The translations under genes and the position numbers were made by a program. The notes under the pieces were generated by a model that worked only from the letters and a program-made list of their open reading frames with translations, had not been told where the DNA came from and ran no database searches. 49,084 nt of DNA, taken from positions 1 through 49,084 of the forward strand of contig CANHQR010000022.1 of the NCBI GenBank assembly GCA_947462815.1, read 5' to 3'. Of the stretch, positions 21,996 through 28,774 are shown in pieces; position 1 is the stretch's first letter; each line of letters starts with the position of its first letter. This DNA is from Pseudobdellovibrionaceae bacterium (GTDB taxonomy: Bacteria > Bdellovibrionota > Bdellovibrionia > Bdellovibrionales > JAMPXM01).

Positions 21996-22451
21996 GTTCA
22001 GTTGTTTTTGCTGGGATTTAGGCAATGAGTCAATGCCCCTTTCGACCAACCGCAAAGCCTCTTTCGCCCCCGGAGAGAACTGAAAACCCAAAGATTGCGG
22101 CACCCTAGAGACTTTTATGACTTCATACAATCTTCACCCTGCACCTCAGTTCCTAACCGGCCGTCGCTGCGCCCAATCCTGGATAGCTGTAGCCAACCTC
22201 TCGTCCTCATTGCGCCAGGGAGCCTGCTAGAAAATTCCAACTCAAATCAGGACATGTCCGACTTCTCGAGGTGCGTCAGCGCGACAAGTCCTAAAAGCGC
22301 GGTGATCTCGCTCACAGAGACTCGACATCGGCCACCGAGCGAGCGAAACGGCCTCAGCACGATCACAACAACTCGAGCCTTGGCCACCGAGTCGCACCCA
22401 AAACGACTCGCTCAGCTGAGGTCTTGAAACAACAAACTCGTAGGGGGTTTT
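21996..22451. other. Upstream region of two divergent genes
   Basis: These 456 bases separate the flavoprotein from the first four-cysteine protein. The leftward frame of the flavoprotein stays open to 22130, so up to 45 codons here might be coding. The remainder shows no convincing gene. GGCCACCGAG occurs twice (22330-22339 and 22382-22391) ahead of the rightward gene. Confidence 0.4.
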
Positions 22452-22763
22452 ATGAAGAAGCTTTTGCTCGCAGCCGTTTTGGGTACTTCGATGAACGCGT
22501 TCGCAGCACAGTACGTGACTGTGGAAGTTTGCAATGGTGGAGAATCTGGCCAAGAGTGCCGCATGGTGACTTACCGCGTGCGCGAAGCGAGCGCCCCGGT
22601 TGTTGAGGCTTGCACCGTCGCTCACGGCGAAGCCGCGACAAAGCCCTGCCCCACCGTGACGGGCGTTCCCGGCTGGCTGAAGAGGCTGAACGAAGCTTTC
22701 GCCAAAGCAGGCTTCAAAGCTCCGGAAACAACTGAAGCTGAGCTGAACGGCGGACCGAACTGA
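22452..22763 (+). CDS. Secreted four-cysteine protein, paralogue A
   Basis: A protein of 103 residues with a short signal peptide (MKKLLLAAVLGTSMNAFA, cut after 18). The mature part has cysteines at 27, 36, 54 and 66 within VTVEVCNGGESGQECRMV, EACTVAHGEAATKPCP and VPGWLKRLNEAF. The gene at 23825-24133 encodes a clear paralogue: the same VTVE-x-C-x-x-GESG-x-ECR start, HGEA, PCP and WLK-x-LN-x-AF blocks, and identical spacing between all four cysteines (8, 17 and 11 residues). I know no family name. Two disulfides in the periplasm or outside the cell are likely. GGGGG precedes the ATG. A hairpin terminator follows at 22806. Confidence 0.8.
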   Translation: MKKLLLAAVLGTSMNAFAAQYVTVEVCNGGESGQECRMVTYRVREASAPVVEACTVAHGEAATKPCPTVTGVPGWLKRLNEAFAKAGFKAPETTEAELNGGPN

Positions 22764-22805
22764 TCTTTGAGTTTGGCTCTCCCAAAGACAAAATTTGACC
22801 CGCAA

Positions 22806-22831
22806 ACGGACAGCCCCCAAATGCTGTCCGT
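22806..22831 (+). terminator. Hairpin after four-cysteine gene A
   Basis: ACGGACAGC, an eight-base loop (CCCCAAAT) and GCTGTCCGT form a perfect 9-bp stem 43 bases past the stop codon. It is followed by ATGTCTTTAAG, a modest U-rich tail. It separates the first paralogue from the regulator-like gene. Confidence 0.65.
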
Positions 22832-22880
22832 ATGTCTTTAAGTCGCCGGAGGTTCGGGGGCTGTATCAGGAAACATCAAG

Positions 22881-22911
22881 ACCCCGGGTGAATTTTCAAT
22901 ACCCCGGGAGA
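22881..22911 (+). promoter_or_regulatory. Direct repeats ACCCCGGGWGA, candidate operator
   Basis: ACCCCGGGTGA (22881-22891) and ACCCCGGGAGA (22901-22911) are spaced exactly 20 bp, close to two helical turns. They lie 63-93 bases ahead of the start of the HTH-like gene. This is a position expected for autoregulation. The assignment is inference from position and repeat only. Confidence 0.45.
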
Positions 22912-22973
22912 CTTTGCAGTCCGTCGCTCGAAACCTCGGTACTCGTCGCCAGCCGTATAAGGAGTTGCGTTCT

Positions 22974-23828
22974 ATGTACGAGTGGCAAGAGTTCAGGTCG
23001 TCTCTTGAAACTCCGAAGCGAACGACGCCTCGTCGCGCGCGAACCCGCCGCTCGCCGACGCTGATGGCGCAAGTCGCTGCGGATCTGGCTGCCTATTTAA
23101 CGGCGAGCAAAGAGTCCGACCATCAATCTGGACCGTCCCCACGTCGCCTGAATTTCATGGCGCGAAAGACGGGTCTGCACGCCGAGACTTTACATCGACT
23201 GCTTCAGCAGCAGACCTCGCCAACCGCCGTTACTTTGCTCAAAATCTATCGTCATTTGCTGGGCGTGCAAGACGACCGCGAACTTCTCCCTCGGCTTCCT
23301 GAGTTGGCGCGCGGCTTCTTAAAGACCCAACACCCAATTCTCATGCAGGAGTCCCGACGATCGCTCCGCGAAGATTTGGCTGAAAAGCTCATTGCCAATC
23401 CGGTCGCTCTCGAAATCTACCTCTGGTGCGGTACCGGTCCCGTGAAGCGTTCAGCCCTTCGAGCTCGCTTTGGCGTCTACGGCTTGCAGATCGTCGATGA
23501 CCTCATTCACGATCAAATCTTGATGGAAGTTTCAGCACACGAGGTGGCTTGGGGTCAGGTGGAGATCAGCCCGACGCTTGAACTTCTTCACCGCGCCGGA
23601 CTTCGTTTGGCGGAGCAATATGTGCGACCCCATCTTGGCTATGAGACAAGTCACAATCATTTCGGCTTCTTTGTCGAGGCACTCTCTCACGAGGCCTACC
23701 AAGCTTGGCTCAAAATCGACGCCGAAGCTTACCGACAGAAAATTGAACTCGCACAAAAACCGCAAAGTCGCGGACAGATCCGCTCTTTCACCTATTCCGT
23801 CGTGGATCAAATCTCGGAGTCGCTATGA
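22974..23828 (+). CDS. HTH-type regulator-like protein
   Basis: A protein of 284 residues. The start at 22974 is set by AAGGAG nine bases upstream; the frame is open 20 codons further but lacks a site. The N-terminus is basic (TPKRTTPRRARTRR). It is followed by an XRE-like helix-turn-helix pattern: LNFMARKTGLHAETLHRLLQ, then TSPTAVTLLKIYRHLLG. The rest is helical (YLWCGTGPVKRSALRARFGV may be a second winged-helix-like unit), without membrane segments or known catalytic motifs. It is probably a cytoplasmic DNA-binding regulator. It resembles, only loosely, the TIGR02147-type regulators of Fibrobacter and Bdellovibrio. Its TGA overlaps the ATG of four-cysteine gene B (ATGA), so regulator and secreted protein are co-translated. 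Confidence 0.65.
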   Translation: MYEWQEFRSSLETPKRTTPRRARTRRSPTLMAQVAADLAAYLTASKESDHQSGPSPRRLNFMARKTGLHAETLHRLLQQQTSPTAVTLLKIYRHLLGVQDDRELLPRLPELARGFLKTQHPILMQESRRSLREDLAEKLIANPVALEIYLWCGTGPVKRSALRARFGVYGLQIVDDLIHDQILMEVSAHEVAWGQVEISPTLELLHRAGLRLAEQYVRPHLGYETSHNHFGFFVEALSHEAYQAWLKIDAEAYRQKIELAQKPQSRGQIRSFTYSVVDQISESL

Positions 23829-24133
23829 ACTCATGTCGCGTTAGCCTCATCTTGCTGATCGCTATCCTTGTGACTCTCCCGGCGTTGGCCGGTTGGGGTG
23901 GCTCTGGAGGGGGCCATCGGCACGAGGCGCGACGAAGGGTGACCGTTGAAATTTGTGATTCGGGCGAATCCGGCACCGAGTGTCGAAGCGTGCGCTATGA
24001 AATTCGACCGCCCAATGATCCACTCCCCGAAATTTGCTGGACCACGCATGGAGAAGCGGCGATGGTTCCTTGCCCAAAGACAACGAGCGTGCCGCTTTGG
24101 CTCAAGCATCTTAATCAAGCCTTTACCAATTGA
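23825..24133 (+). CDS. Secreted four-cysteine protein, paralogue B
   Basis: A protein of 102 residues, a paralogue of the product of 22452-22763. It has a signal peptide (LILLIAILVTLPALA, cut near 22), a Gly/His linker (GWGGSGGGHRHE), then VTVEICDSGESGTECRSV, CWTTHGEAAMVPCP and VPLWLKHLNQAF. Cysteines 44, 53, 71 and 83 have the same spacing (8, 17, 11) as paralogue A. The conserved GESG, HGEA and PCP blocks suggest a shared fold and role. It is translationally coupled to the HTH-like gene, whereas paralogue A has its own terminator. Function unknown. Confidence 0.78.
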   Translation: MNSCRVSLILLIAILVTLPALAGWGGSGGGHRHEARRRVTVEICDSGESGTECRSVRYEIRPPNDPLPEICWTTHGEAAMVPCPKTTSVPLWLKHLNQAFTN

Positions 24134-26422: not shown

Positions 26423-27577
26423 TCACTGAGGTGCGCAGGCCAACATGTAAGCCGCGCCGAACTCCAGCGCCGCGTTGTCAAATGTGAAGGACTCCAATCG
26501 GCGACGTGAGAAGAAGTCGTTTCGGTAAACGTCCACGCGAATTTTCGCACGGAAGGATTCGATTCCCCCATTGGCTTGATAGCCTGAATCCGTGGGGATG
26601 GACACGTACGAAAAGGAATCTGGCGGCGCAATCGCCTTCAAGGTCATTCGATAGTCGCGATTGGTCGCTTCGAGTTCAAACTCCCCAGCACAAGAGTTCG
26701 AGCGAAATTGAAATTGCGTCGATGGATCAGAGGGTGGCGAGAAGAGGTAAGCGTCGCGACCCTTACGAAAACCGACGACAAAACTGTTCACGTTGATGAG
26801 CCGAAGATCCAGTAAGCCCCCCGCCACCGCGAGGCTCGCCTCACCATCTGAGCTCAAGCCCTGCAACCACATCCAGGCTTTGGGAAAAACCTCACCCCAG
26901 TTCTTCTCTTGATGAAGAAATCCCTCACCCTCAATGACAACGGGCAGGTCACCTCGATGATCGGTCAGGCGATAAGATGCCCGACCTCCCGTATTGTCGA
27001 CATGCCAGTAAAGGGGAAGGCCAGGAATCAAGTTCAATAAACCCCAAGGCCCAAGCCCCAGCCAATCCGGCCAAGCTCGTCGCTCGTGAGCTTGAATTTC
27101 CAATTGCAGCGCAGATTGACGAATCAAAACGCGCGATTCGGAGAGCTCCGCCTCCGAGGTCGACCAAACGAAGCTTTCGTCTCTCGCTCCGGACGCAACA
27201 CGTGGCGGGCTCAAGCGTCGAACCCGATGATCCGTGGGATAGGCCTCATCAGTTCGCGGCGAGCTTTCATCCGGAAGCTGAATGAGGGTTGCGAGATAGC
27301 CCGGCACGGGGGCACCATCTTGATAGGCCGAAGTGGCAATCACAACGATCGAAACCTGTCGAGCGGGATCATAGAGACGGTAATACCAGCCCTCAAACCA
27401 CGGTCCTCGAGTCGAAACCGCATGCGGGGGCATAAGCTCTCCCCAGGCCCGAGAATCTGAATTCTCCTGAGCTTGGCTTGAGGCCGACGGAAAGCCTGTG
27501 CCACACACCAAAAGCAGCACGACGAGTGAGCTCAGAAATCGCCTCAGTCTCGCTTGGATGTTAGCAGATGCCGGCAT
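26423..27577 (-). CDS. Exported tocopherol-cyclase-like protein
   Basis: A protein of 384 residues. The signal peptide (FLSSLVVLLLVCGTGFPSASSQA) ends near residue 36. The mature part carries the hallmarks of the tocopherol cyclase family. RGPWFEGWYYRLYDP near the start corresponds to the plant/cyanobacterial FEGWYF block. LPLYWHVDNTGGRASYRL and LHQEKNWGEVFPKAWMWLQG correspond to the conserved E-KNWG...FP-x-x-W-x-W-x-Q block. Plant and cyanobacterial enzymes (VTE1) close the chromanol ring of vitamin E. Many bacterial relatives have no tocopherol pathway, and no other pathway gene is visible here, so the substrate is open. The predicted export is notable. The start has GAGG four bases upstream. 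Confidence 0.75.
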   Translation of the reverse strand: MPASANIQARLRRFLSSLVVLLLVCGTGFPSASSQAQENSDSRAWGELMPPHAVSTRGPWFEGWYYRLYDPARQVSIVVIATSAYQDGAPVPGYLATLIQLPDESSPRTDEAYPTDHRVRRLSPPRVASGARDESFVWSTSEAELSESRVLIRQSALQLEIQAHERRAWPDWLGLGPWGLLNLIPGLPLYWHVDNTGGRASYRLTDHRGDLPVVIEGEGFLHQEKNWGEVFPKAWMWLQGLSSDGEASLAVAGGLLDLRLINVNSFVVGFRKGRDAYLFSPPSDPSTQFQFRSNSCAGEFELEATNRDYRMTLKAIAPPDSFSYVSIPTDSGYQANGGIESFRAKIRVDVYRNDFFSRRRLESFTFDNAALEFGAAYMLACAPQ

Positions 27578-28078: not shown

Positions 28079-28774
28079 ATGTTCAAGTTAAAGAAGACCC
28101 TTTGGATCTTGATGACGATCGCCTTCTCTTCGTTGGCCGACGCTCAATCCCGACGTGAGCTCAATGCTCTTCAGTCGCCCTTTTCACTCCCCGCACTATC
28201 CTATGCCGTTGAAGCTCTCGAGCCCGTGATCGATCGCGAGACGATGAGCTTGCACCACGGCAAACATCATCAAGCTTACGTGGATCAACTTAATAAAGCC
28301 TTAGGTGACAACAAGCTCACGCTCCTCGATGTCCTCAAGCGTACGCGCGAGTTTCCCCCGGCCGTTCGCAATAATGGCGGTGGCCACTGGAACCACGCCT
28401 TCTTCTGGACGGTGATGAGTCCCGCCGAGAAGTCGGGTGCTCCGAGCCAAAAGCTCGAAAAAGACCTCATCGCCAACTTCGGCTCCGTCGAGCAGTTCAA
28501 GGCTGAGTTTGAAAAGCAAGCCCTCGGAATTTTTGGCTCGGGCTGGGCCTGGCTGATTCGCACAACGGACGGCAAACTCAAAATCACGACGACCGCCAAC
28601 CAAGACAATCCCCTCATGGACATTGCGATCGAGCCGGGCCAACCGATTTTGGCTCTCGATGTCTGGGAACACGCGTACTATGTGAACTACCGCAACAAGC
28701 GCGCCGACTACGTCAAAAACTTCTGGAAGATCGTCAATTGGGCCCAGGTCTCAAAGTATCACGCTGAAAAATGA
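28079..28774 (+). CDS. sodA: Exported superoxide dismutase, Mn-type
   Basis: A protein of 231 residues that converts superoxide to oxygen and peroxide. The signal peptide (LKKTLWILMTIAFSSLADA, cut near 22) places it in the periplasm or outside; most Fe/Mn SODs are cytoplasmic. The metal ligands are His59 (SLHHGKHHQAYV), His106 (GGGHWNHAFFW), Asp194 and His198 (LDVWEHAYYVNY). The Gly-Gly-His context and ANQDNPLM, with its Gln, are typical of manganese or cambialistic enzymes rather than FeSOD. GGAG lies five bases before the ATG. The gene stands alone, with a long upstream region. The symbol is given for enzyme type, not orthology. Confidence 0.92.
   Translation: MFKLKKTLWILMTIAFSSLADAQSRRELNALQSPFSLPALSYAVEALEPVIDRETMSLHHGKHHQAYVDQLNKALGDNKLTLLDVLKRTREFPPAVRNNGGGHWNHAFFWTVMSPAEKSGAPSQKLEKDLIANFGSVEQFKAEFEKQALGIFGSGWAWLIRTTDGKLKITTTANQDNPLMDIAIEPGQPILALDVWEHAYYVNYRNKRADYVKNFWKIVNWAQVSKYHAEK

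What the first reader, a model, noticed from the sequence alone, without database searches (positions are those of the whole stretch)
22452..24133. Paralogous secreted four-cysteine proteins flank an HTH-like regulator
The two proteins keep the same cysteine spacing (8, 17, 11) and the blocks GESG-x-ECR, HGEA, PCP and WLK-x-LN-x-AF, while the rest diverges. One copy is translationally coupled to the regulator-like gene. A small secreted effector or signal family with a dedicated regulator is a testable idea.
Basis: partly seen in the sequence, partly recalled or inferred. Interest (0 to 1): 0.65.

Follow-up and report, generated by a model that had tools for sequence, protein, structure and literature searches.

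The report
Self-regulated exported-protein cassette of predatory bacteria
Two related exported proteins flank their own DNA-binding regulator in a bacterium of the Bdellovibrio order, and the same three-gene plan, with a private paired DNA site in front, recurs in its relatives with other exported proteins, which points to an unstudied self-controlled export circuit.

Summary
The window holds two paralogous Sec-type exported proteins (E 2e-27, Cys spacing 8/17/11 in both) around an HTH protein, and the second gene overlaps the HTH gene by ATGA. It is one case of a wider rule. The HTH protein belongs to a divergent branch of the TIGR02147/DUF4423 group found in 31 of 141 genomes of the order. 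In 38 of 49 loci its stop codon is coupled to an exported product. In 30 of these the predicted mature protein starts with a glycine-rich run (GGSGGG, GGGSAGGSG), against 0 of 27 upstream exported proteins. Where the downstream product is full-length and a same-strand exported gene precedes the regulator, the two are paralogues (6 of 6). In Bdellovibrio the downstream product is only a glycine-rich peptide of about 20 residues. A tandem palindrome, GGACA-N0/10/11-TGTCC with two copies 30-32 bp apart, lies upstream of these cassettes. It is absent from control loci and from all five solo homologues without this regulator. So "dedicated regulator" is well supported by comparison. "Small secreted effector" is only partly supported: export is predicted, destination and activity are unknown. 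Best reading: an autoregulated exported-pair cassette. A Gram-negative peptide-feedback circuit is possible but unproven.

The parts
22250..22259 (.). Palindrome GGACATGTCC, first half of a proposed tandem operator, 202 bp before the small1 ATG
   Evidence: Only two exact matches of this 10-mer in the whole genome, the other inside a predicted ORF; homologous sites in other cassettes
22282..22291 (.). Second, weaker copy CGACAAGTCC (2 mismatches), 32 bp further on
   Evidence: the same 30-32 bp spacing in both KLAP46 cassettes and in Bdellovibrio-genus cassettes
22452..22763 (+). small1: exported 4-Cys protein, 103 aa; predicted signal peptide residues 1-18, shared domain about residues 22-83
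22806..22831 (.). Inverted repeat ACGGACAGC-N8-GCTGTCCGT between small1 and the regulator: terminator-like hairpin or third operator site (same half-sites GGACA/TGTCC)
   Evidence: not exceptional by itself against shuffles in this gap (0.12), but hairpins recur in the same gap of relatives
22974..23828 (+). Regulator, HTH (XRE-like) N-terminal part, divergent member of the TIGR02147/DUF4423 group, 284 aa from ATG
   Evidence: ribosome-binding-site-like AAGGAG before ATG 22974
23825..23828 (+). ATGA overlap of regulator stop and small2 start (translational coupling, inferred)
   Evidence: overlaps or near-overlaps of this kind recur in relatives
23825..24133 (+). small2: exported paralogue of small1, 102 aa; predicted signal peptide residues 1-22, shared domain residues 39-100
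23891..23914 (+). Glycine-rich run GWGGSGGG at the predicted mature N-terminus of small2, absent from small1
   Evidence: 30 of 38 downstream against 0 of 27 upstream proteins

Best explanation
A dedicated, autoregulated three-gene cassette. The HTH protein (divergent TIGR02147/DUF4423 type) binds a private tandem palindrome upstream of small1, as two dimers three helical turns apart, and sets the cassette's transcription. Much of the transcript ends at a hairpin after small1, so small1 is made apart from, and probably in excess of, the regulator. Read-through gives regulator plus small2, whose translation is coupled to the regulator by the ATGA overlap. Both small proteins leave the cytoplasm by Sec. 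small2 carries the same domain behind a glycine-rich N-terminus, which probably marks or tethers it differently from free small1. Shown by sequence: the genes, paralogy, overlap, palindromes and their co-occurrence with this regulator, and the glycine-rich asymmetry. Inferred: that the regulator binds the palindromes, the sign of regulation, actual export, and the roles of the two exported forms.
For: Same trio twice in KLAP46 with different neighbouring genes. Downstream coupled exported product in 38 of 49 loci of the regulator family. Coupled exported products of 250 aa or less: 33 of 49 loci against 0 of 29 TetR loci from the same order, p 3e-10 (loci are related, so p is indicative). Glycine-rich start 30/38 downstream against 0/27 upstream, p 2e-11. 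Paralogy of the flanking pair in 6 of 6 cassettes with a full-length downstream protein: z 10.8-58 in five and 72% domain identity in KLAP46 C80. Palindrome: 25 exact sites in 31.6 kb upstream of core regulators against 1 each in TIGR02147 and TetR controls, and those two at other spacers. In the genome of HD100 size the only tandem pair is at the cassette. Absent before five solo small homologues without this regulator. Tracks the HTH sequence class, 17/18 against 1/10. Purifying selection on small proteins and on the 40-aa peptides.
Against: No binding, expression or secretion data. Signal peptides were called by a home-made heuristic. The profile link to TIGR02147 is weak (P 2.7e-4 directly; 4e-10 through an intermediate group) and fails for the window protein alone. 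The window gap hairpin is not exceptional and lacks a strong T tail. The operator was found by eye in these same loci before it was counted. Part of the regulator family (VSEPTLRR type) has no such palindrome and often no downstream partner. Both structure models are of low confidence.
Confidence: 0.68

Rival explanations
1. Peptide-feedback (signalling) circuit that works like PlcR-PapR, NprR-NprX or Rap-Phr of Gram-positive bacteria: the coupled exported product, or a fragment of its glycine-rich part, is sensed by the regulator or by neighbouring cells and feeds back on the cassette.
For: In Bdellovibrio-genus cassettes the coupled product is a 39-49 aa pre-peptide with about 20 mature residues, under purifying selection; a regulator directly followed by, or overlapping, an exported pre-peptide gene is the layout of those systems (own knowledge).
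Against: No TPR domain was detected in the regulator; Foldseek alignments to ComR, PlcR and PrgX are insignificant (prob 0.03-0.08). In the window the product is a 102-aa folded-domain protein. Glycine-rich, low-information peptides are unusual pheromones. No peptide-import evidence was sought.
Confidence: 0.17
2. The exported pair are predation factors acting at the prey envelope, and the regulator merely times them in the life cycle; the glycine-rich run is only a linker or surface-retention feature.
For: Narrow distribution in an order that includes the Bdellovibrio predators; in three B. bacteriovorus-like genomes the cassette is followed by a gene resembling the MAT fibre proteins (fibre family in PMC10769870, the resemblance judged by eye).
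Against: The MAT neighbour is not general. No enzyme, toxin or adhesin family was matched. Whether this MAG organism is a predator is unknown.
Confidence: 0.3
3. Chance neighbourhood: recent tandem duplication of an exported gene around an unrelated HTH gene, no functional link.
For: Most of the 141 genomes lack the 4-Cys family, and solo copies exist.
Against: Same order and coupling twice in KLAP46 and, with other exported families, in many genera; private operator.
Confidence: 0.04

Closest known systems
TIGR02147 (Fsuc_second) / DUF4423 regulator-like proteins of Fibrobacter and Bdellovibrionota
   Same: Length, HTH-plus-C-terminal layout collinear over 226 columns, abundance in the order, frequent coupling to an exported gene (15 of 30 loci)
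   Different: Window protein does not reach the TIGR02147 model in the family scan or own-genome search; link only by profile-profile comparison through an intermediate group; partners of TIGR02147 are mostly lipoproteins with a GTxTGNP motif
RRNPP peptide systems (PlcR-PapR, NprR-NprX, Rap-Phr, Rgg-SHP)
   Same: HTH regulator gene directly followed by, or overlapping, a gene for a small Sec-exported product
   Different: Gram-negative host, no TPR domain detected, product often a full domain, second exported paralogue upstream, tandem palindromic operator
hit locus protein Bd0108 (NF053838; PMC3818213, PMC4267844)
   Same: Small exported protein of a Bdellovibrio relative
   Different: Match is E 0.09, far below cut-off and over the N-terminal 40 residues, mostly signal peptide; closer relatives give none

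Membership tests
TIGR02147 / DUF4423 | Score over the curated cut-off of the family model | tested here: not met
   Not listed for the window protein in Pfam or NCBIfam at E up to 1, nor in the own-genome search at E up to 1
TIGR02147 / DUF4423 | Full-length collinear homology with members | tested here: inconclusive
   hhalign core family against TIGR02147 set P 2.7e-4 over 226 columns; intermediate group to TIGR02147 P 4e-10; core to intermediate 3e-37; TetR control 0.009 over 26 columns; window protein alone no signal
RRNPP peptide-regulator systems | C-terminal TPR peptide-binding domain | tested here: not met
   No TPR in Pfam; fold search without significant full-length match, model of low confidence
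RRNPP peptide-regulator systems | Secreted peptide re-imported and bound by the regulator | not testable with these tools
   Needs binding and reporter experiments
RRNPP peptide-regulator systems | Regulator gene next to an exported pre-peptide gene | tested here: met
   Overlapping exported product in the window and in most relatives; 39-49 aa pre-peptides in Bdellovibrio-genus cassettes
hit_Bd0108 | NF053838 cut-off of 40 bits | tested here: not met
   13.3 bits

The most novel reading that the evidence does not exclude
A Gram-negative counterpart of Gram-positive peptide feedback: in Bdellovibrionota a family of non-TPR regulators each senses its own coupled, Sec-exported glycine-rich product, and the upstream exported paralogue acts as output or competitor.
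Probability: 0.15. Interest if true: 0.85.

Novelty: new variant of a known kind. Interest (0 to 1): 0.6.

Why it matters
The full-text search found a single paper naming TIGR02147 or DUF4423, in one table line, although 59 of 60 sampled genomes of this order carry such proteins, some of them more than 20. The cassette gives a concrete handle on a branch of that group: a candidate operator, a coupled exported partner and a paralogous pair, present in a genome that has the size of B. bacteriovorus HD100 and so testable in a laboratory strain. If the coupled glycine-rich peptide feeds back on the regulator, it would be an unexpected peptide circuit in a Gram-negative predator.

Tried and rejected
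Bd0108/hit membership: rejected, chance signal-peptide match. Weak own-genome hits on contigs C73 and C76: no matching open frame, chance. Cassette at the ubiE/DAHP-synthase site of the own genome, where KLAP46 has one: absent. Relatives in viral contigs: none. Structure of small1: pLDDT 50, not used further. Solved-structure search for the small family: none. The palindrome as an RNA hairpin: unlikely, because GGACATGTCC has no loop. A general operator regulon: not supported, the other GGACATGTCC sites of both genomes lie in coding sequence or at an ORF start. A looser tandem pattern was too unspecific to interpret. MAT fibre linkage as a general rule: rejected. Literature on peptide signalling in Bdellovibrio: none found.

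Full report
OBSERVATION. The small proteins are paralogues: 56% identity over 66 residues, E 2e-27, Cys spacing 8/17/11 in both. The HTH gene most likely starts at ATG 22974, which follows AAGGAG. It ends at 23828 and overlaps small2 by ATGA. The shared domain shows far fewer non-synonymous than synonymous differences between relatives, so both genes are real and constrained.

RELATIVES OF THE SMALL PROTEINS. The family is narrow: 6 of 141 genomes of the order. The window's genome has the pair. MAG KLAP46 (Bdellovibrionota; G010) has two complete trios, small1 - regulator - small2, next to quite different genes. RIFCSPHIGHO2_01_FULL_40_29 (G053), G012, G119 (twice) and G122 have solo members without this regulator. 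In G012 the solo gene is followed by a TIGR02147-type HTH gene and then by another exported protein. Cys spacing varies between members, and the copies in G119 and G122 keep only the first two Cys. The C-GESG-C loop is therefore the core and the later Cys are optional.

THE REGULATOR FAMILY AND ITS RULE. A profile of the regulator finds relatives in 31 of 141 genomes. I read 49 loci. In 38 the regulator's stop codon lies within 40 bases of the start of an exported product, usually overlapping as ATGA or TAATG. In 30 of these 38 the first 20 predicted mature residues hold a glycine-rich run, against 0 of 27 exported proteins encoded upstream. Three forms of the downstream product occur. In the window, KLAP46, G070, G068 and G062 it is signal peptide, glycine-rich run, then a paralogue of the upstream exported protein. 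The upstream families differ between genera, so the paired plan, not one protein family, is what is conserved. In Bdellovibrio-genus genomes it is only a signal peptide plus about 20 glycine-rich residues, for example RGGGSAGGSGNSSPKNGSNK. One of these genomes, G039, has 3,782,950 bases, the size that I recall for B. bacteriovorus HD100. pN is well below pS for these peptides, which indicates that they are translated. In other genera an unrelated exported protein follows. As a control, TetR genes of the same order have 8 of 29 coupled exported products, all of 258 aa or more and mostly of outer-membrane-efflux type by eye, none small. Counts are of related loci, so p values are indicative only.

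REGULATOR RELATIONSHIP. The window protein matches no curated family. By profile comparison its family aligns with TIGR02147 proteins over 226 columns (P 2.7e-4). It is linked more firmly through an intermediate group (3e-37 and 4e-10), whereas TetR aligns over 26 columns only. I read this as a divergent branch, not as proven membership. The N-terminal fold is XRE-like at low significance.

CANDIDATE OPERATOR. GGACA-N0/10/11-TGTCC sites, usually two 30-32 bp apart, lie 90-205 bp before the upstream exported gene. The window has GGACATGTCC at 22250 and CGACAAGTCC at 22282. KLAP46 C81 has two perfect copies 30 bp apart, and C80 has two imperfect copies 32 bp apart. There are 25 exact sites in 31.6 kb upstream of core regulators. 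The TIGR02147 and TetR controls have one exact site each, at other spacers. The window's only two exact sites in 49 kb, over all spacers from 0 to 15, are both in this cassette. In the HD100-size genome five exact N10 sites exist and the only tandem pair is at the cassette. GGACATGTCC occurs twice in the window's genome, the other copy inside a predicted ORF. It is absent upstream of five solo small homologues. It tracks the HTH sequence class, 17 of 18 loci with an H-x-K/E-T recognition segment against 1 of 10 without. A site that follows the regulator rather than the exported family is what one expects of that regulator's operator. The motif was first seen by eye in these loci, and binding was not shown.

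HAIRPIN. Most cassettes have a stable stem-loop between the upstream gene and the regulator. In KLAP46 C80 and C81 it is followed by T runs, like a terminator, and the gap folds better than shuffles in most loci (z -1.2 to -4.8). In the window the corresponding repeat (22806-22831) carries the GGACA/TGTCC half-sites and a weak T tail, so it may be an operator, a terminator or both.

HOW IT MOST LIKELY WORKS. The regulator controls its own cassette through the tandem site. small1 is made from a mostly terminated transcript. Regulator and small2 come from read-through and coupled translation. Both small proteins are exported, and small2 differs by its glycine-rich start. Whether the pair acts on prey, on the cell's own envelope or as a signal is open. 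Peptide feedback in the manner of PlcR-PapR is a fair rival, because the gene layout matches, but no TPR domain was found. All of these steps beyond the sequence features themselves are inference.

Right on the facts and on the dedicated regulator, and too narrow in scope. The effector or signal part remains untested, and homologues do not always neighbour the HTH gene.

LIMITS. Signal peptides come from a heuristic, not SignalP. Gene starts are inferred. Structure models are poor. Many genomes are MAGs.

Noticed in passing
L111-L116 (TIGR02147 loci of the order): TIGR02147 regulators are often coupled (ATGA) to small lipoproteins that carry GTxTGNP right after the lipobox Cys; 10 of 30 loci have a coupled exported product under 250 aa against 0 of 29 TetR loci.
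   Followed up: partly
L129: A TIGR02147 gene flanked by two similar exported proteins, the downstream one with an added GTSTGNP motif: the same plan as in the window.
   Followed up: no
L061, L068, L069: In three B. bacteriovorus-like genomes a gene beginning APNTLTYQGRI, resembling MAT fibre proteins, lies a few hundred to about 1,150 bases downstream of the cassette.
   Followed up: partly
G000:C3:13360-14124 (L039): Another TIGR02147 gene of the same genome overlaps a large exported protein that starts GPTKVGNGDDGGDLEAG, again with a Gly/Asp-rich start.
   Followed up: no
window 26423-27577 (-): ORF with a tocopherol cyclase domain (Pfam E 1.5e-14) and a likely signal peptide, unusual in this order as far as I know.
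   Followed up: no
window 28079-28774 (+): Fe/Mn superoxide dismutase with a hydrophobic N-terminus that looks like a signal peptide.
   Followed up: no
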